A stretch of 64,000 bases of DNA from Nocardioides albidus (lineage in GTDB: Bacteria; Actinomycetota; Actinomycetes; Propionibacteriales; Nocardioidaceae), in NCBI RefSeq assembly GCF_006335005.1, contig NZ_VDMP01000026.1, positions 383,946-447,945 of the forward strand. The letters are read 5' to 3'. This document shows positions 24,158 through 38,303 of the stretch, piece by piece (positions within the stretch are counted from its first letter, which is position 1; the number at the start of each line of letters is the position of its first letter). A program made the position numbers and the translations under genes. The notes beneath the pieces are model-generated. The model saw only the letters and a program-made list of their open reading frames with translations. It was not told the origin of the DNA and did no database searches.

Positions 24158-24234
24158 CGCGGGGTGGAGCAGCTCGGTAGCTCGCTGGGCTCATAACCCA
24201 GAGGTCGCAGGTTCAAATCCTGCCCCCGCTACCA
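24158..24234 (+). tRNA. Initiator tRNA-fMet (CAU), likely integration site
   Basis: A 77-base cloverleaf that ends in an encoded CCA. The acceptor arm CGCGGGG pairs with CCCCGC apart from the first base pair (C1 against T72), the unpaired end typical of initiators. The anticodon stem GGGCTCATAACCC has the three G-C pairs of initiator tRNA, anticodon CAT. The T-arm is GCAGGTTCAAATCCTGC. An excisionase-like gene and a tyrosine integrase lie directly downstream, so the 3' end probably served as attB. No second copy of its 3' end was seen within the window. Confidence 0.9.
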
Positions 24235-24648: not shown

Positions 24649-25845
24649 ATGGCTAGGCCCCGCACTCCGATCGGGACATTCGGCGAGCTCGAGTTCACGA
24701 CGCTTCCCAACGGCACGGTGCGAGCGAGGACGCGCTTCAGGGATCATGACGGGCGGCTGCGACGGGTCGAAGCCAGCGGCGACACTCGCAAGAGCGCCGA
24801 ACACCGCCTCAAGGAGAAGCTCGCGCTCCGCGGCGGCTATTCGGCCGGGTTCGGCGAGCTGACGCCCGACAGCACATTTAGCCACCTGGTCGACGTATGG
24901 CTAGAGGACCTCGACCTCCAGGGCAAGCTCGCGGAGAGCACGAGGGCGCTGTACGAGCGAAACATGCGCCAGCTCGTCATGCCGGCGTTCGAGAACTACC
25001 TCTTGCGCGAAATCAGCGTGCGCAAGGTGGACCAGTTCATCAAGCGCCTGGCGTCGGCCAAGAGCTACAGCACCGCCAAGCAGGCACGCACAGTCCTCAG
25101 CCTCGCGCTCGGCCTGGCCGTCCGCTATGACGCACTCCGAGAGAACCCCGTCCGCGACACAGCCCGCCTCCACAAGCCGCCCTCGGAGACGATGGCCCTG
25201 ACACTGGAGCAGGTTGAGGCGATCCGCGCGGCGGTACGCAGTTGGCGCCGCGCACCAGGGACGCCGGGTCCGCCGCCTGACGGTCAGTTGGAGCAGATCA
25301 TCGAGGTCATGCTCGGGACCTCCGCGCGGATCGGCGAGGTGCTCGCGATCCGAAAGTGCGATGTCGACGTCACGGTAACCCCGGCGACAGTCCGCATCTG
25401 CGGCACGATCGTGTCCCCCGCGGGGAAGCCGACCTATCGGCAGTCCCATCCGAAAACGGCCAAGTCGACTCGGGTGGTGTCGGTGCCGACCTTCGCTGCG
25501 GAGGTGATCCGTCAGCGGCTGGCTGTGGTCAGTCACGAGCCGGCCGAGAATCTGCTCTTCCACACCCGGAACGGGACTCCGTTGACGACCAACAACATCC
25601 GGCGCAGGCTGCGATCCGTGCTGTCGGATGCCGGGATCGAAGGGGTGACTCCCCATGCCTTCCGCCGCACCGTGGCGACGGTCCTCGACCGGGCCAGCGG
25701 CCCGGACCTGGCTGCCGAGCTGCTCGGACACACCTCCTCGAAGATCACCAAGGAGCACTACATCGAGCCCGACGAGGCCGTTGATCCTGTGACGGCCGAG
25801 ATCCTCGAGGCGCTGGCTCCGAAACGGGCGAAGGAGACGTCGTGA
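24649..25845 (+). CDS. Tyrosine integrase of the element
   Basis: A 398-residue site-specific tyrosine recombinase. N-terminal residues 75-165 form the SAM-like core-binding domain. The catalytic set is complete: R227 (SARIGE), H336 and R339 (HAFRR), H361 (LGHTSSK) and Y371 (EHY). It follows xis and sits at the tRNA-fMet 3' end, which it presumably uses as attB. The N-terminal 60 residues form an AP2-like arm-binding domain. The stop codon overlaps the start of the toxin gene. Confidence 0.9.
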   Translation: MARPRTPIGTFGELEFTTLPNGTVRARTRFRDHDGRLRRVEASGDTRKSAEHRLKEKLALRGGYSAGFGELTPDSTFSHLVDVWLEDLDLQGKLAESTRALYERNMRQLVMPAFENYLLREISVRKVDQFIKRLASAKSYSTAKQARTVLSLALGLAVRYDALRENPVRDTARLHKPPSETMALTLEQVEAIRAAVRSWRRAPGTPGPPPDGQLEQIIEVMLGTSARIGEVLAIRKCDVDVTVTPATVRICGTIVSPAGKPTYRQSHPKTAKSTRVVSVPTFAAEVIRQRLAVVSHEPAENLLFHTRNGTPLTTNNIRRRLRSVLSDAGIEGVTPHAFRRTVATVLDRASGPDLAAELLGHTSSKITKEHYIEPDEAVDPVTAEILEALAPKRAKETS

Positions 25846-26288
25846 ACGAGGAGGAGCCCGATCGTCATACCCTTTCCCACGTAGAGGGGAAAGGGTATAC
25901 TGCTGGAGTCTGGGAGGTCGACGTCGAGCTGATCGAGGGCTGGCTCGACGAGGCGGATCCAGACACCTTCGACCAAGTGATCGCTGCGATCCGTCTGCTC
26001 GCAGATCACGGCCCGGGACTTGGTCGACCACTGGTGGACTCGATCGTCGGGTCTCGACACAAGAACATGAAGGAGCTGCGACCCGGGTCCGCAGGTCGCA
26101 GTGAGGTGAGGATCCTGTTCGCGTTCGATCCGAAGCGCAGAGGGATCATGCTCCTTGCCGGCGACAAGCACGGGGCGTGGCAGAAGTGGTATCGCACGAA
26201 CATCCCGATCGCTGACGATCGGTACGACGAGCACCTGAAGAAGCTCAAGGAACAGAAGGGCGGGGAACGAGATGGCAAAGACGCTTGA
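25842..26288 (+). CDS. HigB/RelE-type toxin
   Basis: A RelE-superfamily toxin of the HigB type. The core reads VWEVDVELIEGWLDEAD, then GRPLVDSIVGSRHKNMKELRPGS and RILFAFDPKRRGIMLLAGDK, matching ribosome-dependent mRNA interferases. The GTG at 25842 is the only in-frame start, yet family members usually begin at the WEVDVE segment near codon 23. No ATG, GTG or TTG exists there in frame. So either the first 22 residues are a real extension or translation starts unusually. A 32-base palindrome lies within this stretch. It overlaps the antitoxin gene by 17 bases, with the toxin first as in HigBA. Confidence 0.75.
   Translation: MNEEEPDRHTLSHVEGKGYTAGVWEVDVELIEGWLDEADPDTFDQVIAAIRLLADHGPGLGRPLVDSIVGSRHKNMKELRPGSAGRSEVRILFAFDPKRRGIMLLAGDKHGAWQKWYRTNIPIADDRYDEHLKKLKEQKGGERDGKDA
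25867..25901 (+). promoter_or_regulatory. Perfect 12-bp palindrome with -10, likely HigBA operator
   Basis: The arms ATACCCTTTCCC (25867-25878) and GGGAAAGGGTAT (25887-25898) are exact complements around an 8-base spacer. The end of the right arm overlaps TATACT (25896-25901), a perfect -10. This is the layout of a self-repressing toxin-antitoxin operator, here inside the annotated 5' end of the toxin gene. Confidence 0.7.
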
Positions 26289-26577
26289 GGAGTACATGGC
26301 CAAGCGCCCCGGCCGTCCCGACGTCCAGGCGCGCCACATGGAGCGCATGCTCGCCGAGGTGCGCGCCTACCGCCTCCGTGAGCTGCGCGAGATGATGGCC
26401 ATGACCCAGACCGACGTCGCGGAGACGCTGGAGATCAGCCAGAAGCGGGTCTCCGAGATCGAGCGCGGAGACGTCGAGCGGACCAAGGTCGACACCCTTC
26501 GTCGCTACGCCGATGCGCTCGGCGGGACGCTGCGGGTGGAGGTCCAGGTCGGCGACGAGACGTATCAAATCGCCTGA
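26272..26577 (+). CDS. HigA-type XRE antitoxin
   Basis: A 101-residue antitoxin. The helix-turn-helix is at residues 38-70 (LREMMAMTQTDVAETLEISQKRVSEIERGD). N-terminal basic helices precede it and a short beta-rich tail (TLRVEVQVGDETYQIA) follows. It should bind the preceding toxin and repress the promoter at 25867-25901. The ATG at 26272 lies inside the end of the toxin gene. The pair probably stabilises the element. Confidence 0.85.
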   Translation: MAKTLEEYMAKRPGRPDVQARHMERMLAEVRAYRLRELREMMAMTQTDVAETLEISQKRVSEIERGDVERTKVDTLRRYADALGGTLRVEVQVGDETYQIA

Positions 26578-28942: not shown

Positions 28943-29356
28943 TCAGAGGCCGACGGCGGGCGGCTGCGGCACAGCGGTCAGGGGCGGGTCGGCGGCGTGA
29001 CGTCCGCGCTGAACGACGTAGTCGGTCTTGTTGGCGTTGTGGCCGATCTTGCGGGCAACGAACTCCTCCCTGACGACGCTGCCCTCGCGGCCGTCCACGT
29101 CGTACTCGTGGACGTAGCCACTGGCCACGAAAGAGTCACCCTTGCGGAAACGGGCGTACGTCTCGCGGGCGGTGCTCTCGAAGGCCACCATGTCGTGGAA
29201 GGTCGGGTCGAGCTTCGTGAAGCTGCCGTCGACCTCCTTGCGCCACTGCTCGATGCCGACACGCAGACGGCAGCACTCGGCGCCCTGCTTGGTGAAGTGG
29301 AGCTCCGGCGCGGAGGCGACGAAGCCGACTAGGCTCATCTGAGTGGGAATGGACAT
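28943..29356 (-). CDS. Single-stranded DNA-binding protein
   Basis: A 137-residue OB-fold SSB. The N-terminus has the typical LVGFVASAPELHFTKQGAECCRLRVGI strand, and TFHDMVAFESTARETYARFRKGDSFVASGYV matches the central SSB segment. It lacks the long Gly-rich linker and the acidic C-terminal tip of chromosomal SSBs, so it is a plasmid-type SSB. Start at 29356, two codons in, with AGGAG five bases upstream. It probably covers single-stranded DNA during transfer. Confidence 0.8.
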   Translation of the reverse strand: MSIPTQMSLVGFVASAPELHFTKQGAECCRLRVGIEQWRKEVDGSFTKLDPTFHDMVAFESTARETYARFRKGDSFVASGYVHEYDVDGREGSVVREEFVARKIGHNANKTDYVVQRGRHAADPPLTAVPQPPAVGL

Positions 29357-29473
29357 CATGACTCCTGGGATCTGGCGGCGCCTCGATGAACACCGCGCTC
29401 AGGAGTGAGGTGCACTGGCTACGCCACCAGCCGGAAGTCCGAGCTACTCGAGCCGGAAGCGTGCACAGCCCTG

Positions 29474-31450
29474 TCAGCCGGCCTCAGTGCCTTGGTCGAT
29501 CTCTTCTTCGAATACCTCATCGGGGAGATACGGCGCGTACCTCTCGCGCATCAGACTGAGCCCTGTGTCGCGATCAGACTCGTACTGAAGTGACTGTTCA
29601 ACAAACTTGATTCGATGGCGCGCGGACGACAGAACCTCGGCCCAGGTATGGACCCAGATGCTGTACTTCTCGCCCTGATGAGCGCACCCGAACGGGCGAC
29701 CGATCTGTCGACGCATCTCGTCGACGTCCTTGCGGGTGTCGTTGCCGATCAACCAGAAGTCCCATGTCACGTTGGGTTGGTTGAACCGCTCGTCGTTCAC
29801 GATTGCACTGGCGTAGCTCCGCAGTTGGTCCACGTCAGCCGCCTCAAGACGGTGGTTCGGGCGCTTAAGCTCCACGACCAGGTGGGTCATGCGGTCCTCG
29901 TTGGATGGCATGGAGCGACCAAGCACCAGATCTGGAATCGCCTCCTTGCCGTCGTCGCGGACGATCTTCGAGCTCGCCAACTCCACGTCTTGGCCGAGCT
30001 TCTGCAGAAACTTCTTAAGCACGGCGTTGAGCGGCTTGTCGTCGCCAGTGATCGACCACTGCTCGCCGAACAGCCACGTCTCGTTCGCGAGGATGCGGTG
30101 CAACTGCCGGCGTTCCAGCATCCGCCGGCGGGTCTGACGATCGAACAGCAACGCATCAAGCCCGTTCAGGAAGTCGACGCGCCCTCCGATCTCCTTACCC
30201 ACCTGGATCAGGTGGGTCAGCGACGTGCGTTCCAAGATCTCCTTTAATTCGTCCAGTCGCTGCCCCGGGAGCTTCACCACCTCGTGGAGTATTGGCAGCA
30301 AGGATTCCGGATCGTTTTCCAACGCCTCGCGCATCAGGCGCAATGCCAGCGCCTTGACGCGACGCGACTTGGTCTCCTCGATGGTGCGCGCCGTGGTCAT
30401 CGCCACGACATTGAAGATCTCGCGAGTTGCGCTCTCGACGGCATTTTGCGGTTCGCCGTCCTCAAACGGGTAGACCCCTTCAGCCTTCCACCCCCGGACC
30501 GTGTCAGCCTCCCGCTTGCGTGCTGAGTCGGCGAGAGCCGCTCGGAGCGCTGCCTTGGCTGTCGTGATCACCTGCCCAGGCAGCGAGTCGAGGTCGTCCA
30601 GAAGGAGCATGGGGGCGTCGTGACTGAATCCATCCCACCGCAAGTAGGCGGTGAACTCCGACCCGGGACTCCGAATGCCGGGCGGAATGTCGTCGATAAT
30701 CGAGCCGTCTGCAGTGCACAGGTAGAGCCGACGGTCGACGTTCGACAGATTCCACTCGATGAGAGTGAGGCTCGCAGTCCCATCGACGCCGTCTGGCAGT
30801 TCGAGCTCGATCTCCCGCTGCGTCTCGATAACGGAGACCGGGGTAAGAGCCTCGTCTAGGAACTCGATGTTGAAGTCTTCGTAGCGCTCCAGATGGAGCG
30901 CGAACTCTCCCAGGAGCTGGTTTCGTAGGTCGTCAGTCCGGTCAAAAGCGCTCTGCGCGGCAGCGGTGACCATGCCGACAACGACTCGCGTGCCTGACGT
31001 CGTCGATTCGCAGGCGCCCTCGCTGATCTCCATGTGCTGAAGGTCGTCGGCATTGCCACGTACCGTGACGGTCGACGGCGCCCCTCCCTCTACCTGGGGT
31101 GCCGTCGAGACCCATTGCACGGAGCGTCCCAGGCCGAAAGCGGCGTACCTGCCCCGGCCGAGTTTTCCGTGCACTGGCCGCTTCCCCTCAGTGAGTGCGC
31201 CCGGCTTGCGCTTCCAACTGTCGCCAACAGTCTCGAAGGCCAACTGCGCACGCTGGAGATTCATCCCGTGCCCGTCGTCCTCGACTTGGATCTGGTCGAT
31301 GGCCCCGAGGGCGTTGGTTGTCACGCGAACGCGCACCAATGTGGCGTCCTCGTCGAAGGCGTTCCAGATCAGCTCGCACAGCCCTGCGCCGGGCCGTTTG
31401 ACATAGCTCTCGAGGATGGACTTGCCCGCGTGCACGGTGATCCTCGTCAT
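29474..31450 (-). CDS. GHKL ATPase fused to PD-(D/E)XK nuclease
   Basis: A 658-residue two-part protein. The N-terminus has a Bergerat ATPase: E26, N30 and D33 (ELIWNAFDEDA), the DDGHG box at 58-62 and the Gly-rich GKLGRGRY near 95-102. The ATPase is followed by a sensor-like middle region. The C-terminus holds a PD-(D/E)XK nuclease: NETWLFGEQW at 456-465, D507 (IPDLVLG), E527-L-K529 (VVELKRP) and QLRSY at 542-546. It belongs to no family I can name with confidence. It lies in the element between the coupling-protein gene and SSB, in the same orientation, 115 bases downstream. Predicted role: ATP-gated DNA cleavage, possibly defence. A clear ribosome site is missing; the ATG at 31450 is preferred because the fold begins there. 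Confidence 0.75.
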   Translation of the reverse strand: MTRITVHAGKSILESYVKRPGAGLCELIWNAFDEDATLVRVRVTTNALGAIDQIQVEDDGHGMNLQRAQLAFETVGDSWKRKPGALTEGKRPVHGKLGRGRYAAFGLGRSVQWVSTAPQVEGGAPSTVTVRGNADDLQHMEISEGACESTTSGTRVVVGMVTAAAQSAFDRTDDLRNQLLGEFALHLERYEDFNIEFLDEALTPVSVIETQREIELELPDGVDGTASLTLIEWNLSNVDRRLYLCTADGSIIDDIPPGIRSPGSEFTAYLRWDGFSHDAPMLLLDDLDSLPGQVITTAKAALRAALADSARKREADTVRGWKAEGVYPFEDGEPQNAVESATREIFNVVAMTTARTIEETKSRRVKALALRLMREALENDPESLLPILHEVVKLPGQRLDELKEILERTSLTHLIQVGKEIGGRVDFLNGLDALLFDRQTRRRMLERRQLHRILANETWLFGEQWSITGDDKPLNAVLKKFLQKLGQDVELASSKIVRDDGKEAIPDLVLGRSMPSNEDRMTHLVVELKRPNHRLEAADVDQLRSYASAIVNDERFNQPNVTWDFWLIGNDTRKDVDEMRRQIGRPFGCAHQGEKYSIWVHTWAEVLSSARHRIKFVEQSLQYESDRDTGLSLMRERYAPYLPDEVFEEEIDQGTEAG

Positions 31451-31565
31451 GTCGTCATGCTGCCACAGAGGTCCGACACGTCCGGGGGCTCGGAGTGGCG
31501 TGCACGAGACTCCAGGAGGGCGCCCGGGCGGCCTGGTGCGATTCGGTGTCGAAAACGGTGCTGGC

Positions 31566-33281
31566 TCATCGATTCGTCCAAGATCGAAGGCCAGCCACGA
31601 TGGGCGGCACCGAGCGAAGCAGCACGAGGCCGGTGCCGAAGGGAAGCGTTCGGATCCGCTCTGGCGGCATTACCGCGACGCGGCGAGTCGACCGCTGAAG
31701 GGAGCGCTGGCCGTAGTCGCCGATGCTCACGGTGTCGGTGCGCTCGTCGCGCTCGCCGATGAGAACCGAGAGTTCCTGCAGGTCCTTCGAGGCCGATGCG
31801 CCGCCGAGGATGACCTTGACGATGCTCGCGTCCCAGATCGTGCTGGCCGCATGGTCGCCCCACTTGTTGCGCGCCTGAGCCAGCGACTGGAGGACGGGCA
31901 TTGTCGTGATCCCGGTCCCGCCGCCCTCGGCCATCAGGACCGGGAGGGAGGGGAGCGGCGCGAGGTTGCCGATCTCGTCGAGCGCCATGAGGACGGGAGG
32001 GTCCAGGCGTGAGCCTGGTGACGCCGCAGCGAGGTGACGGGCGACCTCGGTGAGGTCTTCCATGAACGCGGCGACGAGCGGCCACGAGGCACCTGCGCCG
32101 GCTCCGGTGGCCAGCAGGTAGAGAGTGCCGCATTTGGTAAGGAAGTCGCGCGGGTCGAACGCCTCGCCCGGCTCCGGGCTGACGGCCTCCAGCACGGCAG
32201 GATCGGCGAGGCAGGAGAGAGCTTGGGCGACGGCCATCCAGATGGAGTCACGGGTGCGCGGATCTGAGCTGATCATGCCCTCGAGCGAGTCCGACCATCC
32301 CGCAGCTGCTTGCGGGTGGCTGGCGAGGATGCCGACGGCGTCAGCTGCGGCAGATGCGGACAGAGACCATTCGAAGAGTGCGCGAGTCGGTAGTTGCTCG
32401 AGGGCGGCTGCATGGAGGAGCGCTTGGAGCGCGGAGCGGGCCTTGCCTTCCCAGAAGCCGCCGGACTCTGTGCCGCCGGAGGAGAGTCCGGTCGACGACG
32501 CCAGCCCTGAAGCGCGGATCATCGCAGTTAGGGGCTGTTCGCAGCCGCGGATCGGCGACCATCGAACGCCGCAACCGTCGACGGCTGGCACTCCCTCGGT
32601 GAGGTGCTGAGGGTCGAACACGGCGACCGGCCCGTGTTCCTTGCGGGCTGTGATCGTGGAGGCGATGTTGTCCGGCCGTGTGGAGGTGGTGACGACGGTC
32701 CCGGGCGCGTCGAGGATGGCATTGATGACGAGGTGGAGTCCCTTGCCGGAACGTGGCGGACCGATCACGAGGATCGAGTCCTCGACCGATGCCCAGATCT
32801 CGCGGCCACAGCTGCGTCCGATCAGGTAGCCGACGTCGCTCGCGCGGGGGTGGCGGATCGAGGGCCGAAGGGTGGCGGCACGTCGTACGAGGGCCTTCTT
32901 CGATGCGGTCGTGTCGATGTCCCGGGCGGTTGCGGTGCCCTTGATGCGGTGGGGATCTCGAGCAGCCCGGTGCCGCAGACGAGCGACCAATCTCCACACG
33001 CACCAGGCGATTGTCGCGAGGACGCCGAGCAGCAGCACAACGACGCTCCAATACGCGATCGCTGACAACCCGGGCGCCTCGAATGCTTGTGCTGGCCGGC
33101 GAGGCTCGGTCAGGACCCGCAGTCCGCTCGCGATCCCGCCTTCGGGCGCGGCCGCACCCGTTGCGACCGCAGCGGCCGTGGCTGCGGCGCGGAGCACCAG
33201 CGCCAGAGTGAGCGCCGCGACTATCCCGATGAGTGCCAGGTTCACGAGCTCGTCGTTCCCACCGCGTGCTGCGGGGTTCAT
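31566..33281 (-). CDS. VirD4/TraG-type conjugative coupling ATPase
   Basis: A 571-residue type IV coupling protein. Two N-terminal membrane helices (about 13-40 and 72-100) are followed by an AAA+ motor: Walker A GPPRSGKG at 174-181, Walker B VLMALDEIGN with D435-E436 and a TraG-like TGITTMPVLQSLAQARNKWG segment. It would bring the DNA-relaxase complex to the transfer channel. It overlaps the 154-residue gene by four bases and follows ArdC in one run. It is shorter than proteobacterial TraG but matches actinobacterial conjugative element versions. Confidence 0.85.
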   Translation of the reverse strand: MNPAARGGNDELVNLALIGIVAALTLALVLRAAATAAAVATGAAAPEGGIASGLRVLTEPRRPAQAFEAPGLSAIAYWSVVVLLLGVLATIAWCVWRLVARLRHRAARDPHRIKGTATARDIDTTASKKALVRRAATLRPSIRHPRASDVGYLIGRSCGREIWASVEDSILVIGPPRSGKGLHLVINAILDAPGTVVTTSTRPDNIASTITARKEHGPVAVFDPQHLTEGVPAVDGCGVRWSPIRGCEQPLTAMIRASGLASSTGLSSGGTESGGFWEGKARSALQALLHAAALEQLPTRALFEWSLSASAAADAVGILASHPQAAAGWSDSLEGMISSDPRTRDSIWMAVAQALSCLADPAVLEAVSPEPGEAFDPRDFLTKCGTLYLLATGAGAGASWPLVAAFMEDLTEVARHLAAASPGSRLDPPVLMALDEIGNLAPLPSLPVLMAEGGGTGITTMPVLQSLAQARNKWGDHAASTIWDASIVKVILGGASASKDLQELSVLIGERDERTDTVSIGDYGQRSLQRSTRRVAVMPPERIRTLPFGTGLVLLRSVPPIVAGLRSWTNR

Positions 33282-33742
33282 GCGGGCGCCTCGAATGGGG
33301 TGACTGTCCGTGACCTCGTCCCGAGCAGTACGAGCCCACCGCGGGTTGCGGCGATCAGCGCGGGCGGGAGGTTCAGTGACGCGTTGCCTTCCGCGTCGGC
33401 GTTCTGGCGTACGACGACGTAGGCCAGGGCGACTTCCTCGCCGGGCTGGAATCCGGCACCAGCGAGCGCCGGAGGTCGCGAGCTGGGAGACGGTTCCGCG
33501 GCGGCTGCAGCCGAGGACTCTCGAGGAGTCGCGACGTCAGTGAACGTCGAGCCGTCGGCCTCGCGTACCTCGACGCGTACAGGGGCGCCGAGGTCTGAGG
33601 TGATCTCGTCGATGACAGCGCGAAGGTCGCCGCGTGTCCTGGTCTGTTCGGAATAGTGCGGGACACCGTCGACGTCGACCGCGAGTACGCCGTCGGCGTC
33701 GATGGCGACGTGAACGGTGCTGAGGACGACGGGGATCTTCAT
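33278..33742 (-). CDS. Hypothetical protein coupled to coupling protein
   Basis: A 154-residue protein I do not recognise. An N-terminal alpha/beta part (KIPVVLSTVHVAIDADGVLAVDVDG) is joined by a Ser/Ala/Pro linker to a second part. It overlaps its neighbours by four bases on both sides: the stop of ardC-like and the start of the coupling protein. The fixed position suggests an accessory subunit of the transfer machine. No membrane segment. Confidence 0.6.
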   Translation of the reverse strand: MKIPVVLSTVHVAIDADGVLAVDVDGVPHYSEQTRTRGDLRAVIDEITSDLGAPVRVEVREADGSTFTDVATPRESSAAAAAEPSPSSRPPALAGAGFQPGEEVALAYVVVRQNADAEGNASLNLPPALIAATRGGLVLLGTRSRTVTPFEAPA

Positions 33743-34818
33743 AGCCCGAGCACCGCCCCATCACGGCGTTCTGTGGTGGTGACTGCAGCTGTCCCCGTGC
33801 GGTGGCTGAGGGCTTCGCGGTCGAGCCCCGGCGGGTTGCCGTCGCCGACCTGCTGGGTGTCTACCTTGTCGAGGATGCCGAGCGCGGTTGTGCGGACGCG
33901 TTCGGCGGTTGACTGGACGACCTCGACAGGGTTCTTGCCGGGGACGCTCGCTGCCCAGGTCGACACGTACGGCACCGTGTAGGAGGAGGTGTCGAGCCCG
34001 TGGGCGGCGCCGACCATGAGCGCGACGGATTCGGCCTCCACCTCGGCGATCCCACGGTGCAAGGTCGCGTCGGCGGCGGACTCGGTCGACGGGGCGGTCT
34101 CCGGTGGCGCGTGGAGGAGAACATGGCCGAGTTCGTGGGCGAGCGTCTTCACCTGGGCCGCATCGTCCATGTCCATGCGGACCGAGACCGCGCGGGAGAG
34201 GAAGTCGGTCAGGCCGTTGGCGCCGCCGATCGCCGCAGCCGAGGAGACGAGTCGGAGCTCGAAGCCGGCGGCCGTGATCTGGTCGGCGAGCCCGTCCCAC
34301 AGCCCGTCCGGCGCTTGACCTTGAAGTAGGGAGGGGCGGGGGAGTTCGGGCACCGGGTCGCCGGTGGTCTGGGAGATGTCCCAGACGTAGGTCGGCTTGA
34401 CCCCGATCATCCGGGTGCGGGCGTACTCACCGGACATCGGCTTCTCGTTGCGCGCCAAGCGTCGCCAGGAGTTCGGGTCGTCGGGCGTGAACGAGGCGAA
34501 CCGACCTGTGACGGGGGCGAGGATGCCGTAGCCGCGCTGGCCTTTCGCGACGCTGCGGCCGAGCGAGAGCCACTGGTGGAAGCCGGCGACGTACGTCGGC
34601 GTCGGCTCGGGCACTCTGCCCTCCTCGTACGCCGCGAAGTGCTGCGCCGCGATCAGCATCGAGTTCCCGAAGCTGCGCCCGCGGAACTGCGCGGCGAAGG
34701 TCAGGGCGCGCTTCCAATCCTCGCCGGTCATCAGCGCAGCAACGGACTCGGACAATTGCTCCTGGAGCGCCTCGAGCTTCGCTTCGCGGGCTGCTCGACC
34801 GCGTACCTGAGTGGTCAT
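33739..34818 (-). CDS. ArdC-like antirestriction/metallopeptidase protein
   Basis: A 359-residue protein with an ArdC-type N-terminal ssDNA-binding domain (LTFAAQFRGRSFGNSMLIAAQ, then FHQWLSLGRSVAKGQRGYGILAP). The C-terminus carries an ImmA/IrrE-like zinc motif H228-E229-x-x-H232 (AHELGHVLLH) and a distal Glu in AEVEAESVALMV. ArdC proteins protect incoming single-stranded DNA from restriction. It starts the leftward run of coupling protein and hypothetical. The ATG at 34818 is 176 bases from the divergent recombinase trio. The C-terminal 40 residues look disordered. Confidence 0.8.
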   Translation of the reverse strand: MTTQVRGRAAREAKLEALQEQLSESVAALMTGEDWKRALTFAAQFRGRSFGNSMLIAAQHFAAYEEGRVPEPTPTYVAGFHQWLSLGRSVAKGQRGYGILAPVTGRFASFTPDDPNSWRRLARNEKPMSGEYARTRMIGVKPTYVWDISQTTGDPVPELPRPSLLQGQAPDGLWDGLADQITAAGFELRLVSSAAAIGGANGLTDFLSRAVSVRMDMDDAAQVKTLAHELGHVLLHAPPETAPSTESAADATLHRGIAEVEAESVALMVGAAHGLDTSSYTVPYVSTWAASVPGKNPVEVVQSTAERVRTTALGILDKVDTQQVGDGNPPGLDREALSHRTGTAAVTTTERRDGAVLGL

Positions 34819-34994: not shown

Positions 34995-36080
34995 ATGGGC
35001 TTGGTGGCGCTGCCGGGTGGCAGCGCTGCTGATCCGGCACTGATAGGTGCGCAGGCGGTGCTGGACTTCGAGCAGGAGGTCGTCGACCAGTACGCGCTGG
35101 CGATGTCGGCAGCAGGTCTGACTGACCGCCACATCGGCGGGACCCGGGCGATCGTCATTGAGTTCGCGCGCTCGCTGTCCACCCCGCTGTGGGAGGCCAC
35201 CTGCGCGGACGCGGACGCCTTCTTGGCCCAGCAGCGACGGATGGGGCTCAGCGTGTCGACCCGGGCGGGCAAGGCAGGGGCGCTGTCGGGGTTCTATGAG
35301 TTCGTGATCGCCCGCTACGAGGGCACGATTCGACGCGCGACTGGCGTATTGGTTGAGCAGCCGATCGATGAGTTCAATCGCCAGTCCGGGGCATCGCTGG
35401 GCAAGATCCGGGTGCCGCCATCGGATGACGAGGTCGACTCGCTGTTCACTGCCTGGCGCGGATCGGTCCCGCAGGCACGCAAGTATCGGCCGGCGGCCCG
35501 CGACTACTTCGCCGCCTCGCTGTGGCGCCGGCTCGGGCTGCGGATCAACGAGACCGTCATGCTCGACATCCGCGACTGGCGCCCCGATCTGGGCGAGTTC
35601 GGCAAGCTCCACGTTCGCCACGGCAAGGGCTCCGGCGGCCGCGGACCCAAGCCCCGGCTGGTGCCGGCCATCAACGGCGCGAACCAGTTGATCGACTGGT
35701 GGCTGGGAGAGGTCCGCCCGCAGTACGGCGAGGATTGGGCTGACCCGGATGCGCCGATGCTGCCGTCCGAGCGGTTCGACCGCGAGCTGGACCGCTGTGG
35801 CCGCGTCGGCGCGAACGCGCTGCGCCGCGCCCTGGGGATCCAGGTCGATCAGTGGCTTCCGGCGTGGTCGGGGCGGATGACGCCACACGTGCTGCGGCAC
35901 TACTGCGCATCGTCTCTGTACGCGGCCGGCATGGACATCAAGGCCCTCCAAGAGCTCCTTGGCCACCAGTGGCTGGCCACCACCTCGGGCTACCTTCACG
36001 TCCGCAGCGACCACATCGAACGTGCGTGGAACAACGCGAGCGACCGTGTTGAAGCCCGCCTTGGCATTCGTACCGACTGA
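34995..36080 (+). CDS. Tyrosine recombinase of the cargo trio (catalytic)
   Basis: A 361-residue tyrosine recombinase, first of three rightward genes. The full set of catalytic residues is present: R183 (RLGLRINE), H298 and R301 (HVLRHYC), H324 (LLGHQW) and Y333 (TSGYLHV). An N-terminal SAM-like core-binding domain covers about 20-120. It is only distantly similar to the element integrase at 24649. Start ATG at 34995. The HTH gene starts 31 bases after its stop. The trio sits where the conjugation region is split, next to the copper cargo, so it is the probable vehicle. Confidence 0.85.
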   Translation: MGLVALPGGSAADPALIGAQAVLDFEQEVVDQYALAMSAAGLTDRHIGGTRAIVIEFARSLSTPLWEATCADADAFLAQQRRMGLSVSTRAGKAGALSGFYEFVIARYEGTIRRATGVLVEQPIDEFNRQSGASLGKIRVPPSDDEVDSLFTAWRGSVPQARKYRPAARDYFAASLWRRLGLRINETVMLDIRDWRPDLGEFGKLHVRHGKGSGGRGPKPRLVPAINGANQLIDWWLGEVRPQYGEDWADPDAPMLPSERFDRELDRCGRVGANALRRALGIQVDQWLPAWSGRMTPHVLRHYCASSLYAAGMDIKALQELLGHQWLATTSGYLHVRSDHIERAWNNASDRVEARLGIRTD

Positions 36081-36111
36081 CCCGATCGACGAACCGAAGG
36101 AGAGGATCCAG

Positions 36112-36471
36112 ATGCAGTGGAGCCTGCGGCTGCGAGCCGCCGAGAGAGGGATCTGGAAGTCCGCGGAGCTGCGCCGGATGCTGGCTGAGGCCGGGCTTGA
36201 GATCAGCGCCGGGAAGATGTCGTCGTGGTGGGCTGGCGCCCCGCCGACAATGCGGCTCGAAGAGCTCGACGTGCTGTGCGCCGTGCTCGAGTGCAGCCCG
36301 AACGACCTGATGACACCGGAGCCGGACAAGGTCGCCGCCCGCCGTCCCCGCAACACGGACGCAGCCAACGGCAACGGCGGCAACGGGAACGGCGATCCGA
36401 ACGACAGCGCCGGTATGCCCCCGGCGGTCACCCCGCGGCTCGGCAAGCCGCGGTCGACCCCGCCGCTGTAA
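36112..36471 (+). CDS. XRE-type DNA-binding protein of the trio
   Basis: A 119-residue protein with an N-terminal Cro/C1-type helix-turn-helix (WSLRLRAAERGIWKSAELRRMLAEAGLEISAGKMSS and DVLCAVLECSPNDLM). The tail is Gly/Asn/Pro rich and disordered. The ATG at 36112 follows AAGGAGAGG. It lies between two recombinase genes and is likely a regulator or recombination partner. No Cys or metal motifs. Confidence 0.75.
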   Translation: MQWSLRLRAAERGIWKSAELRRMLAEAGLEISAGKMSSWWAGAPPTMRLEELDVLCAVLECSPNDLMTPEPDKVAARRPRNTDAANGNGGNGNGDPNDSAGMPPAVTPRLGKPRSTPPL

Positions 36472-36509
36472 CCCTCGCCCACATCGGCCACGGCGACGAG
36501 GAGCATTGC

Positions 36510-38303
36510 ATGCCAGCGCCCGGCCCGAACGCGCCCCTGCGGGTGCCGCCCAAGTGCAACGCCTGCCAGGACAACCGGGTTGCCTGGACCAACCCCCGAG
36601 TCGACCTCTGCTATCGCTGCCTGCCCGGTGGCCCGTTCGCATCGCCACCGTGCGACCACTGCGGCTCCCGAGCCGACTACTTCAGTCAGGGATTGTGCAG
36701 TCGATGTCATCCCCGCAGCCCCGAGCACATCGGGTCCTGCAAAGGCTGCCTGGCCTGGGGCGTCTACCCCCGCCACAACTGGACCTGCTGGTCGTGCCGC
36801 TGGTGGCAGACCCACTACCCGAAGGGCACCTGCGGCTTCTGCGGCCGCACCAGCCACGTCAGCGACAGGCGGGCATGTCGCCTCTGCCTTGAGAATGCCC
36901 GACTCGAGCAGGTGCCCGGGCGCGCCCCGGACCTCGCCGGCACGAACAAGAACAGCCAGCAGTTGTTCTTCGCCAACATGGTCTTCAAACGTCGGGTGAC
37001 GCCGCTGCCGGACTACGTCAGCTGGGATGCCCGTTGGTCGAAGAAGAACAAGAACCAGCTGAGCTACCACCCCGGCACCAGCTTCGACGAGCACGCGCGC
37101 GAACAGTTGACCCTGTTCGATATGGACCCCGACCCCGAGGTCCTGCGCCAACGAATCCTGCTCGAAGACAGTGAGCTGACGCGCTACTGTGCGGCCATCG
37201 TTGCCGATCACGCCCGGCGCTACGGCTGGAGCGTGAGGCAACGCAATGCGGTGATTCAGACCTTGCGGATGCTGCAGACCGTCCGGCCGACGCCCACTGC
37301 GAAGGTCCGCGCTAGCGACGTCGTCGCCGTTCGCCGCTACGACGGCACCATCACCTCCACCCTCGACGTCCTCGCGGAAGCCGAGTTGCTCATCGAAGAC
37401 GTTCCGACACGGGTGGAGCGGTACTTCAACGCCAAGTTCATCGAATCCGGAGGCCTCCCCGACGCGATGCGGGAGCACCTCCAGTTGTGGCTTCAGGTCA
37501 TGCTCGGTGGATCCCGACAAGCACCTCGCCAACTGCCCCGCGAACCCGAGACCGTCGAGATCCACATCCAAGGGCTGGCACCCGTGGTCCAGCGGTGGGT
37601 CGAAGCCGGCCGCCGGTCGTTCGCAGAGATCACCAAGGACGACATCCTGGCCGCCCTCGCGACCCTGCCTACCGGCACCAGCCACCGCCACTTCGCGGAG
37701 AACGGGCTGAAGTCGTTGTTCAAGATCCTCAAGGGCCGCCGACTCGTCTTCGCCAACCCCATGCGGGGCATCGATCTGACCCGCGTCCACACCAACATTC
37801 CGATGCCGTTGGACCCCGCGCTGATCCGGGCCGAGCTGGACTCGCCGAACCCGGCCGTCGCGCTCGCAGTGGCCCTGGTGGCCTTCCACGGCCTGACCGG
37901 CAAGCAGGTGCGCGAGCTCGGGTTGACCGACATCGTCGACGGCCGGCTCCACCTCGACGGCCGCGACATCCCGCTTGCAGCACCCGTTCGGACCCGGCTG
38001 AGCGCCTGGCTCGACTACCGCAACCGAACCTGGCCCAGCACCGCGAACCCACATCTGCTCATCAACCGAAGAACCGCGCCGCGGCTCGTGCCGGGCGGCC
38101 ACTCCTTTCCCTGGAAGGACAGCCGCATTCGTCCGCGGGCCCTGCGCGAGGACCGCATCCTGCACGAGATCCACGCCACCGGCGGCGACGTACGCCGCAT
38201 CTACGACCTGTTCGGACTCAGCGTCGAAGGCGCCACCCGCTACCTGGCGACCGTCGATCACTCCGATCTCGGCGACCCCACCGGACTGGCCAACCGGTCG
38301 TGA
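36510..38303 (+). CDS. Degenerate tyrosine recombinase with eight CxxC pairs
   Basis: A 597-residue protein. The N-terminus has eight CxxC pairs at 16-19, 34-37, 48-51, 63-66, 77-80, 93-96, 108-111 and 123-126, enough for four zinc ribbons. The rest resembles a tyrosine recombinase core, but the first catalytic Arg is replaced (GLTGKQVREL, Gln at the Arg place) and the HxxR box reads RALR, so the His is missing. A Tyr remains at 578. It is likely a non-cleaving partner of the first recombinase. Start ATG at 36510 with GAGGAGC before it; the frame extends upstream without a better start. Similar trios occur in other actinobacterial mobile DNA (recollection). Confidence 0.7.
   Translation: MPAPGPNAPLRVPPKCNACQDNRVAWTNPRVDLCYRCLPGGPFASPPCDHCGSRADYFSQGLCSRCHPRSPEHIGSCKGCLAWGVYPRHNWTCWSCRWWQTHYPKGTCGFCGRTSHVSDRRACRLCLENARLEQVPGRAPDLAGTNKNSQQLFFANMVFKRRVTPLPDYVSWDARWSKKNKNQLSYHPGTSFDEHAREQLTLFDMDPDPEVLRQRILLEDSELTRYCAAIVADHARRYGWSVRQRNAVIQTLRMLQTVRPTPTAKVRASDVVAVRRYDGTITSTLDVLAEAELLIEDVPTRVERYFNAKFIESGGLPDAMREHLQLWLQVMLGGSRQAPRQLPREPETVEIHIQGLAPVVQRWVEAGRRSFAEITKDDILAALATLPTGTSHRHFAENGLKSLFKILKGRRLVFANPMRGIDLTRVHTNIPMPLDPALIRAELDSPNPAVALAVALVAFHGLTGKQVRELGLTDIVDGRLHLDGRDIPLAAPVRTRLSAWLDYRNRTWPSTANPHLLINRRTAPRLVPGGHSFPWKDSRIRPRALREDRILHEIHATGGDVRRIYDLFGLSVEGATRYLATVDHSDLGDPTGLANRS

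What the first reader, a model, noticed from the sequence alone, without database searches (positions are those of the whole stretch)
29474..31450. GHKL ATPase fused to a PD-(D/E)XK nuclease: possible single-gene defence factor
All three Bergerat motifs are intact (E26/N30/D33, DDGHG, Gly-rich loop) and the nuclease has D507, E527-L-K529 and a QLRSY helix. Hsp90/MutL-like ATPases linked to nucleases occur in several defence systems. This one lies in a conjugative element beside antirestriction and SSB genes, where a host- or rival-targeting nuclease makes sense. The assignment to any known system is not possible by eye.
Basis: partly seen in the sequence, partly recalled or inferred. Interest (0 to 1): 0.7.

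Follow-up and report, generated by a model that had tools for sequence, protein, structure and literature searches.

The report
ATP-gated anti-phage nuclease on mobile element
The gene encodes an ATP-powered switch joined to a DNA-cutting enzyme, most likely a one-gene antivirus defence of a kind already shown in the cholera bacterium, here carried in a swap-in slot of a mobile DNA element that also carries other defence systems.

Summary
The gene is intact and lies on the minus strand (31450..29474, 658 aa): GHKL ATPase, S5-like transducer, helical linker, C-terminal PD-(D/E)XK nuclease. Its ATPase and nuclease residues are invariant in the 38-sequence alignment wherever a row has them (463 is E or D). 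The architecture is known: paraMORC3 (Iyer 2008) and VcSduA, a single-gene GHKL-Shedu anti-phage system that needs both activities (Adams 2025). Profile comparison puts our nuclease nearer the Shedu nuclease than two other PD-(D/E)XK families, but Pfam's Shedu model does not detect it (0 of 19), so I do not file it as Shedu.

New is the setting. The gene is cargo in a tRNA-Met-integrated conjugative element. In sister elements the same interval is empty in 7 of 24 regions; others hold QatABCD, AbiL or a PADLOC candidate. The element also carries a Type I restriction system and Azaca, 53-75 kb away. In Nocardioides zeae a close relative lies just downstream of a methylase/specificity module whose homologue is also on this element.

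Verdict: new member of a known kind, most likely ATP-gated direct defence. Activity, trigger and partner are untested.

The parts
29474..31450 (-). GHKL ATPase - PD-(D/E)XK nuclease gene (658 aa), the cargo gene
   Evidence: ORF; intact relative to full-length homologues; single copy in the genome
30971..31450 (-). GHKL (Bergerat) ATPase domain, about residues 1-160
   Evidence: Pfam HATPase_c_3 24-121; structural match to TRAP1/Hsp90/MORC
30596..30853 (-). S5-like transducer domain, about residues 200-285
   Evidence: model; the Hsp90/MORC alignments span about residues 7-320
30131..30583 (-). helical linker, about residues 290-440
   Evidence: secondary structure of the model, (parts at pLDDT 60-66)
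29585..30115 (-). PD-(D/E)XK nuclease domain, about residues 446-622 (E446, E463, D507, E527-x-K529, Q542, Y546)
   Evidence: conservation; profile match to SduA_C proteins; secondary structure
31566..33281 (-). conjugative coupling protein (T4CP), left flank of the cargo slot
   Evidence: TraG-D_C E 1.3e-27; TrwB match E 1.5e-5
28943..29359 (-). SSB-like gene, right flank of the cargo slot
   Evidence: marginal: 15 of 15 PDB matches up to E 10 are SSBs, best E 0.029; found downstream of T4CP in 22 of 24 regions, ours included
33739..34818 (-). ArdC-like antirestriction gene of the backbone
   Evidence: ArdcN 29.8 bits (cut-off 22.6); found in 18 of 24 regions
24158..24234 (+). tRNA-Met; its 3' end (24197-24232) is the left attachment repeat of the element
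   Evidence: tRNA; 35- and 36-bp direct repeats 84 and 91 kb to the right
24649..25845 (+). tyrosine integrase of the element (name by eye)
   Evidence: position beside the tRNA; similar genes at the same end of several sister regions

Best explanation
A single-gene DNA-targeting defence enzyme of the paraMORC3/VcSduA type. Inferred mechanism: two subunits dimerise when the GHKL domains bind ATP. The S5 and helical middle parts form a clamp or cavity that takes up DNA or a phage nucleoprotein. The ATP cycle then positions or releases the C-terminal Shedu-like nuclease, which cuts invader DNA (phage or competing element). It is carried as cargo by a conjugative element, inserted between the coupling-protein and SSB genes, and protects element and host together. 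SHOWN here: domain make-up, strictly conserved ATPase and nuclease residues, profile similarity of the nuclease to the Shedu nuclease, cargo position in a variable slot, other defence systems on the same element. INFERRED from VcSduA and other GHKL proteins: dimeric clamp, ATP gating, direct DNA cutting. UNKNOWN: trigger, self/non-self rule, targets.
For: Fold and motifs. Nuclease half: hhalign against nine SduA_C proteins 97.3% and 96.3%, against 81.0% for eight HSDR_N_2 proteins, 19.3% for fourteen Mrr_cat proteins and at most 0.5% in 20 column shuffles. The target aligns pairwise to L084, a GHKL protein that carries SduA_C, in both halves (E 8e-10 and 8e-6). Tested relative: VcSduA is a GHKL + DUF4263 single-gene anti-phage protein; E27A and K557A each abolish defence, and infected cultures were protected at all tested MOIs (passages of PMC12137116). 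Cargo slot: of 24 regions aligned on the coupling protein, 7 have T4CP and SSB 128-160 bp apart, ours holds this gene alone, and others hold QatABCD (L119), the AbiL pair (L118) or candidate PDC-M45A (L116). Gene GC is 62.1% against 66.7-69.6% for the element stretches measured and 73.0% for the first 23 kb of chromosome. Same element: Type I R-M and Azaca ZacA/B/C.
Against: Pfam SduA_C does not hit the target or any of 19 family members at E <= 1; PADLOC SduA hits only 2 of 19, best E 0.0075; HSDR_N_2 scores better by direct HMM (13 of 19, best 5.6e-5), and 81% against it by hhalign is not negligible. I did not have the VcSduA sequence; its E-to-K spacing (530, from E27 and K557) lies outside the 500-518 of our clade (36 rows with both residues), though L084 (528) and the divergent members L010/L011 (539, 560) are near it. 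Several relatives lie beside methylases (L004, L005, L007, L089), so a partner may be needed. The slot is not defence-only: of 20 cargo ORFs given to PADLOC 9 had a hit at E <= 1e-5; L130/L131 look like metal resistance and L123/L125 like insertion sequences (by eye). Enrichment was not tested. No activity data exist for this gene.
Confidence: 0.72

Rival explanations
1. It is the restriction subunit of a modification-dependent system: it cuts DNA lacking (or bearing) methylation placed by a separate methylase, possibly the unlinked methylase/specificity module at extended window coordinates 92461-95896 of the same element.
For: The module's three genes are homologous (55, 43, 42% identity) to three genes just upstream (one ORF between) of the GHKL homologue in Nocardioides zeae (L005). 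L004 and L089 have a Type IIG/ISP methylase immediately upstream of the gene, and L007 has one about 4 kb away. The related HgiDII-like branch lies beside a C5 methylase in 4 of 4 loci looked at (L084 by eye; three chosen from 44 plasmid records). Iyer 2008 allowed that some paraMORC3 may function with R-M systems at unlinked locations.
Against: In this element module and gene lie about 61 kb apart, and the module is followed by another large protein (PDC-S53). The genome has no C5 methylase. VcSduA acts on its own in E. coli. Nine annotated homologue loci show no DNA methylase beside the gene, though the plasmid gene tables are incomplete; the neighbours of the viral-contig homologues were not annotated.
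Confidence: 0.2
2. It is a transfer or maintenance function of the conjugative element (processing, repair or circularisation of transferred DNA), not defence.
For: It sits in the same orientation between coupling protein and SSB; a homologue in Alisedimentitalea lies directly after virB11, one gene before a coupling-type gene; in Streptomyces plasmids it lies next to or one gene from a helicase gene in 3 of 7 annotated loci.
Against: It is in none of the other 23 sister regions, and homologues occur in phage records and in R-M neighbourhoods.
Confidence: 0.05
3. It is a MutL- or Hsp90-like housekeeping protein (repair or chaperone) with an added nuclease.
For: MutL and Hsp90 models match the N-terminal ATPase.
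Against: Scores are far below cut-offs (MutL 25 of 180 bits, HSP90 19.9 of 455); patchy distribution (12 of 96 genomes with any match, our own included; three others match across most of the protein and G019 weakly); mobile contexts.
Confidence: 0.02

Closest known systems
VcSduA (Vibrio cholerae VSP-II WASA; assigned to Shedu type I-D; PMC12137116)
   Same: Single gene; N-terminal GHKL ATPase, middle domain, C-terminal PD-(D/E)XK nuclease; equivalents of both essential residues (E27 ~ E26, K557 ~ K529); on a mobile island.
   Different: Motif spacing 503 here against 530; Pfam SduA_C does not detect ours; sequence of VcSduA was not available for a direct alignment.
paraMORC3 family (Iyer, Abhiman, Aravind 2008; PMC2292703)
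   Same: GHKL + S5 + C-terminal RE-fold domain with an E-D-ExK motif; subset described as standalone genes without conserved neighbours.
   Different: The 2008 paper describes the family as prevalent in proteobacteria and bacteroidetes; this member and its closest relatives found here are actinobacterial. No paraMORC3 sequence of that paper was aligned here.
BbrUII/HgiDII-type restriction enzymes (NCBIfam NF050001) and L084-like proteins
   Same: Homologous GHKL half; L084 carries an SduA_C nuclease and aligns with the target in both halves.
   Different: Target scores 53.6 of the required 550 bits, over residues 22-197 only; L084 scores 264 bits over its full length (also under 550); that branch has an adjacent C5 methylase in the four loci looked at, this gene does not.
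Shedu SduA nucleases (Pfam PF14082, formerly DUF4263)
   Same: Nuclease half matches by profile comparison with E446, D507, ExK and Q542 in register.
   Different: Not detected by the Pfam model; the SduA proteins used in A4 lack a recognisable GHKL half (by eye).

Membership tests
paraMORC3 | N-terminal GHKL domain with conserved ATP-binding motifs | tested here: met
   Pfam; motif columns
paraMORC3 | S5 domain C-terminal to GHKL | tested here: met
   model; MORC and Hsp90 chains align over about residues 7-320, Z 17-19.6, rmsd 4.2-7.1 A (a few rows with rmsd 2.5-2.9 cover the ATPase only)
paraMORC3 | additional C-terminal RE-fold domain with E-D-ExK motif | tested here: met
   E446, D507, E527, K529 in 38 of 38, acid at 463 in 38 of 38; profile match to PD-(D/E)XK proteins; fold of this part not searched
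Shedu (SduA) | SduA_C (PF14082, DUF4263) domain by the Pfam model | tested here: not met
   no hit in the target at E <= 10; 0 of 19 members at E <= 1
Shedu (SduA) | nuclease core homologous to SduA_C by profile-profile comparison | tested here: met
   hhalign 97.3% and 96.3%, best of three families compared (HSDR_N_2 81.0%, Mrr_cat 19.3%)
Shedu type I-D (VcSduA) | GHKL ATPase fused to the nuclease, equivalents of both essential residues | tested here: met
   E26 and K529 against E27 and K557 of the paper
Shedu type I-D (VcSduA) | direct sequence orthology to VcSduA | not tested
   VcSduA sequence not obtained; spacing differs, 503 against 530
Shedu type I-D (VcSduA) | anti-phage activity dependent on ATPase and nuclease | not testable with these tools
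   needs phage plating
BbrUII/HgiDII Type II restriction enzyme (NF050001) | model score over the curated cut-off (550 bits) | tested here: not met
   53.6 bits, residues 22-197 only
BbrUII/HgiDII Type II restriction enzyme (NF050001) | cognate C5 methylase (defining by recall, and by the four loci) | tested here: not met
   no DNA_methylase (PF00145) match in the held genome (96% complete); control rang in 10 of 14 genomes
MutL | MutL equivalog score (TIGR00585, cut-off 180) | tested here: not met
   25 bits, residues 17-73

The most novel reading that the evidence does not exclude
The gene is an exchangeable effector of an element-borne epigenetic defence: a methylase/specificity/third-gene module marks self DNA, and either the GHKL nuclease (as beside it in N. 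zeae) or a helicase-like protein (PDC-S53, as beside it here) does the killing. On this element the module would serve a GHKL nuclease stored 61 kb away in a swap-in slot between two conjugation genes.
Probability: 0.1. Interest if true: 0.65.

Novelty: new member of a known kind. Interest (0 to 1): 0.42.

Why it matters
It extends the GHKL-nuclease defence architecture, whose anti-phage action has to my knowledge been tested in one Vibrio protein, to an actinobacterial clade that the Pfam Shedu model misses, so surveys built on that model would undercount it. It also points to a cargo slot inside the conjugation genes of an actinobacterial element family where known and unknown genes, some of them defence systems, are swapped. 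Reading that slot in more genomes is a direct way to find further systems: the unassigned cargo of L117, L120, L121, L122 and L129 are candidates.

Tried and rejected
Filing it as Shedu by Pfam: rejected. Filing it as an HgiDII-type restriction enzyme: rejected. MutL/Hsp90 housekeeping: rejected (contexts). First structure with 8 sequences: nuclease region unreliable, pLDDT under 50 for 408-518; replaced by the 38-sequence model. Fold searches: the rows shown are GHKL, Hsp90, MORC, topoisomerase or RIIA-type matches and unnamed viral proteins; they say nothing for or against the nuclease half. A profile of the nuclease alone found no PDB sequence at E <= 10. A search for SduA_C in 58 near relatives found none, nor did its 14 controls; 296 genomes of the phylum gave 12 with matches, nine of which made A4 (L074 and L083 left out because I recognised no matching ORF, L084 kept apart). 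The control profiles were eight HSDR_N_2 and fourteen Mrr_cat proteins picked by strand of the match; a single L084 nuclease half scored 71.9% against ours and 97.0% against the SduA_C set. A viral-contig search with L084 found nothing. Placing VcSduA by E-to-K spacing is weak, since the spacing varies in divergent members. PADLOC single hits are not proof: in a control of 10 window genes 2 had hits at E <= 1e-5, a UvrD-like gene (named by eye) to GajB (3e-73) and a small gene to NsnC (2e-7). So only the multi-gene systems are taken as evidence and PDC-M45A stays a candidate. Of 71 cargo ORFs, 20 went to PADLOC (9 with hits, 11 without) and 10 to Pfam (5 with hits). L136 hits (PDC-S02, REase_II) are not counted for the slot because no SSB was found in the roughly 47 kb fetched beyond its T4CP. 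Of 91 places, 24 regions were fetched; four at 47-50% identity and the weaker ones were left out, except G073 (51%) and the broken G023 copy. No promoter analysis, tree or dN/dS was done.

Full report
Observation. It is the only copy in its genome. Pfam finds HATPase_c_3 at residues 24-121, E 6.6e-13, and nothing above cut-off in the C-terminal half. The named motif residues are all there. In a 38-member alignment the ATPase residues checked are invariant in every row that has them, and E446, D507, E527, K529, Q542 and Y546 are invariant in 38 of 38. The model built from that alignment has mean pLDDT 82 and shows GHKL (about 1-160), S5-like (200-285), a helical linker (290-440) and a nuclease-like region (about 446-622). 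TRAP1/Hsp90 and MORC structures align over about residues 7-320 at Z up to 19.6, rmsd 4.2-7.1 A.

Family. Close relatives (54-58% identity over the full length) are in Mycolicibacterium, Mycolicibacter, Mycobacterium, Nocardia and Nocardioides zeae, and one at about 35% is in an Ilumatobacteraceae MAG. More distant full-length relatives (about 28-35%) are in plasmids of Streptomyces, rhizobia, Phaeobacter, Paracoccus and others (47 plasmid records, 34 with at least 80% coverage), two Pasteurella phage records and viral contigs. Among 96 genomes drawn as relatives, 12 had any match including our own; besides ours, G035, G013 and G040 matched across most of the protein (27-32%) and G019 weakly (22% over 24-546). 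The genus is taken as Nocardioides from genome sizes of the relatives and from L005 only; this is inference.

Nuclease half. Pfam's SduA_C (Shedu) model does not detect the target or any of 19 members at E <= 1. HSDR_N_2 is matched weakly in 13 of 19 (best 5.6e-5), and PADLOC SduA in 2 of 19 (best 0.0075). I therefore gathered actinobacterial SduA_C proteins (12 of 296 genomes), aligned nine of them (A4) and compared profiles. Our C-terminal half matches them at 97.3% and, with a separately built alignment, at 96.3%. The same half scores 81.0% against eight HSDR_N_2 proteins and 19.3% against fourteen Mrr_cat proteins, and 20 column shuffles reach at most 0.5%. E446, D507, ExK and Q542 fall in register. 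One protein in the SduA_C set, L084, is itself a GHKL fusion; the target aligns to it in both halves (E 8e-10 and 8e-6). The nuclease half is thus most likely a diverged Shedu-type core, but the curated membership test fails.

Literature. Iyer and colleagues described paraMORC3 as GHKL + S5 + a C-terminal domain with E-D-ExK, partly as standalone genes (abstract and section 5 read). [quoted passage not shown] Of PMC8011034 I saw passages. Two searches for further work on GHKL with Shedu, and on paraMORC, returned 2 and 7 papers; of the others I saw only listings. The Shedu papers by Gu and by Loeff were seen only as entries in a reference list; one was not held. That HgiDII and BbrUII are tested restriction enzymes is recalled.

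Setting. The gene lies in an element integrated at tRNA-Met. The last 35-36 bases of the tRNA recur at extended window coordinates 108076 and 115369, giving an element of about 84 kb if the first is its end. It lies between a coupling-protein gene (TraG-D_C E 1.3e-27; TrwB) and an SSB-like gene (all 15 PDB matches up to E 10 are SSBs, best E 0.029), with an ArdC-like gene further upstream. Its GC is 62.1% against 66.7-69.6% for the element stretches measured and 73.0% for the first 23 kb of chromosome.

Cargo slot. I searched 96 relatives with the coupling protein (91 places) and fetched 24 regions: 22 at 63% identity or more (our own included), one at 51% and one broken copy. The backbone recurs: ArdC in 18 of 24 upstream of T4CP, SSB downstream in 22 of 24. 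T4CP and SSB matches lie 128-160 bp apart in 7 of 24 (L126-L128, L132-L135). One has 456 bp without a called gene (L124). Thirteen hold 1.7-46 kb between them (L115-L123, L125, L129-L131; for L119, L130 and L131 the SSB was found only after fetching further). Three are not classifiable (L136 no SSB found; L137 no SSB match; L138 decayed). Of the 13, ours holds the GHKL gene alone. L119 holds QatA, B, C, D (E 1e-94, 5e-11, 8e-101, 1e-51); L118 the AbiLi/AbiLii pair (1e-90, 6e-27); L116 candidate PDC-M45A (6e-91) with a NERD-domain protein. L117 has a Schlafen AlbA_2 protein and L122 an Hsp70-family protein. L130/L131 look like metal resistance and L123/L125 like insertion sequences (by eye). 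The rest are unassigned. Of 20 cargo ORFs given to PADLOC 9 had hits (8 of 10, 1 of 10); a control of 10 window genes had 2, neither of them a multi-gene system. A CACCT block upstream of SSB is shared by 18 of 18 aligned right flanks; in the empty sites T4CP seems to read on into a short tail that ours lacks (by eye). None of the other 23 regions has this gene in the slot. In G013 a divergent relative (L010, about 30%) lies 43 kb from that genome's coupling gene, perhaps on the same element; this was not checked. Enrichment was not tested.

The same element, further right, carries a Type I R-M system (84502-90442; PADLOC E 1.6e-183 for M and 0 for R; the S gene named by position), an AAA protein, a methylase/specificity module (92461-95896), PDC-S53 (95994-98687, E 0) and Azaca ZacC-ZacB-ZacA (100426-106600, E 0, 3e-165, 2.7e-131). 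So it is a defence-rich element.

Homologue neighbourhoods. L004 has an HKD/SNF2-type helicase and a Type IIG methylase directly upstream; L005 a methylase/specificity/third-gene module just upstream (one ORF between); L007 a Type IIG-like methylase about 4 kb away; L089 a Type ISP R-M gene overlapping by 4 bases. I sent chosen neighbours of L004, L005, L007, L008 and L089 only; L008's one gave no hit, nor did L004:10747-11487, L005:10023-12338 and L007:10690-12147. Others have no defence neighbour by annotation (L085, L086, L088, L090-L094, L185; plasmid gene tables are incomplete), L087 lies inside a type IV secretion cluster, and two plasmid records are not annotated. The L005 module is homologous to the one on our element (55, 43, 42%).

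Mechanism. I commit to an ATP-gated, probably dimeric clamp with a Shedu-like nuclease that acts alone against invading DNA, with a methylase-partnered variant as the main rival. Homology, invariant residues and setting support it; gating, dimer and target are inferred from VcSduA and other GHKL proteins.

Noticed in passing
window 29360-31565 and loci L115-L138: The interval between coupling-protein and SSB genes is a cargo slot in a family of Nocardioides-related conjugative elements: empty in 7 of 24 regions, filled with different genes in 13, among them QatABCD, AbiL and unknown cargo.
   Followed up: partly
extended window coordinates 84502-106600 (L186, L187): Distal defence island of the same element: Type I R-M, AAA ATPase, methylase/specificity module, PDC-S53 and a complete Azaca system.
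   Followed up: partly
G013:C1:4252068-4254002 (L010, L021): A divergent GHKL-nuclease relative (about 30%) lies 43 kb from the coupling gene of a sister element (G013:C1:4207444-4209144) and may be cargo of that element too.
   Followed up: no
window 34995-38303 (+ strand): Three overlapping ORFs (361, 170, 692 aa), the first and third resembling tyrosine recombinases by eye, perhaps a three-recombinase insertion; similar sets in L132 and, at 63-93% identity, in L138 beside a decayed element.
   Followed up: no
window 25842-26577: Small gene pair beside the integrase resembling a RelE-type toxin and HTH antitoxin by eye; the first matches PADLOC NsnC weakly (2.2e-7).
   Followed up: no
L084:40-3187: An actinobacterial GHKL-SduA_C fusion beside a gene that looks like a C5 methylase (by eye); L180-L182 show the same pairing by annotation, an R-M version of the GHKL-Shedu design.
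   Followed up: partly
L086, L088, L094: In Streptomyces linear plasmids a homologue lies next to, or one gene from, a large convergent helicase gene, in L086 and L094 close to the end of the record.
   Followed up: no
L136:6220-15589: Third coupling-protein copy of genome G044 is followed by SNF2, sacsin-type HATPase and restriction-like genes (PDC-S02), with no SSB found nearby.
   Followed up: no
extended window coordinate 115369: A second tRNA-derived repeat 7.3 kb beyond the first suggests a tandem or neighbouring small element holding an integrase-like gene (by eye) at 108221.
   Followed up: no
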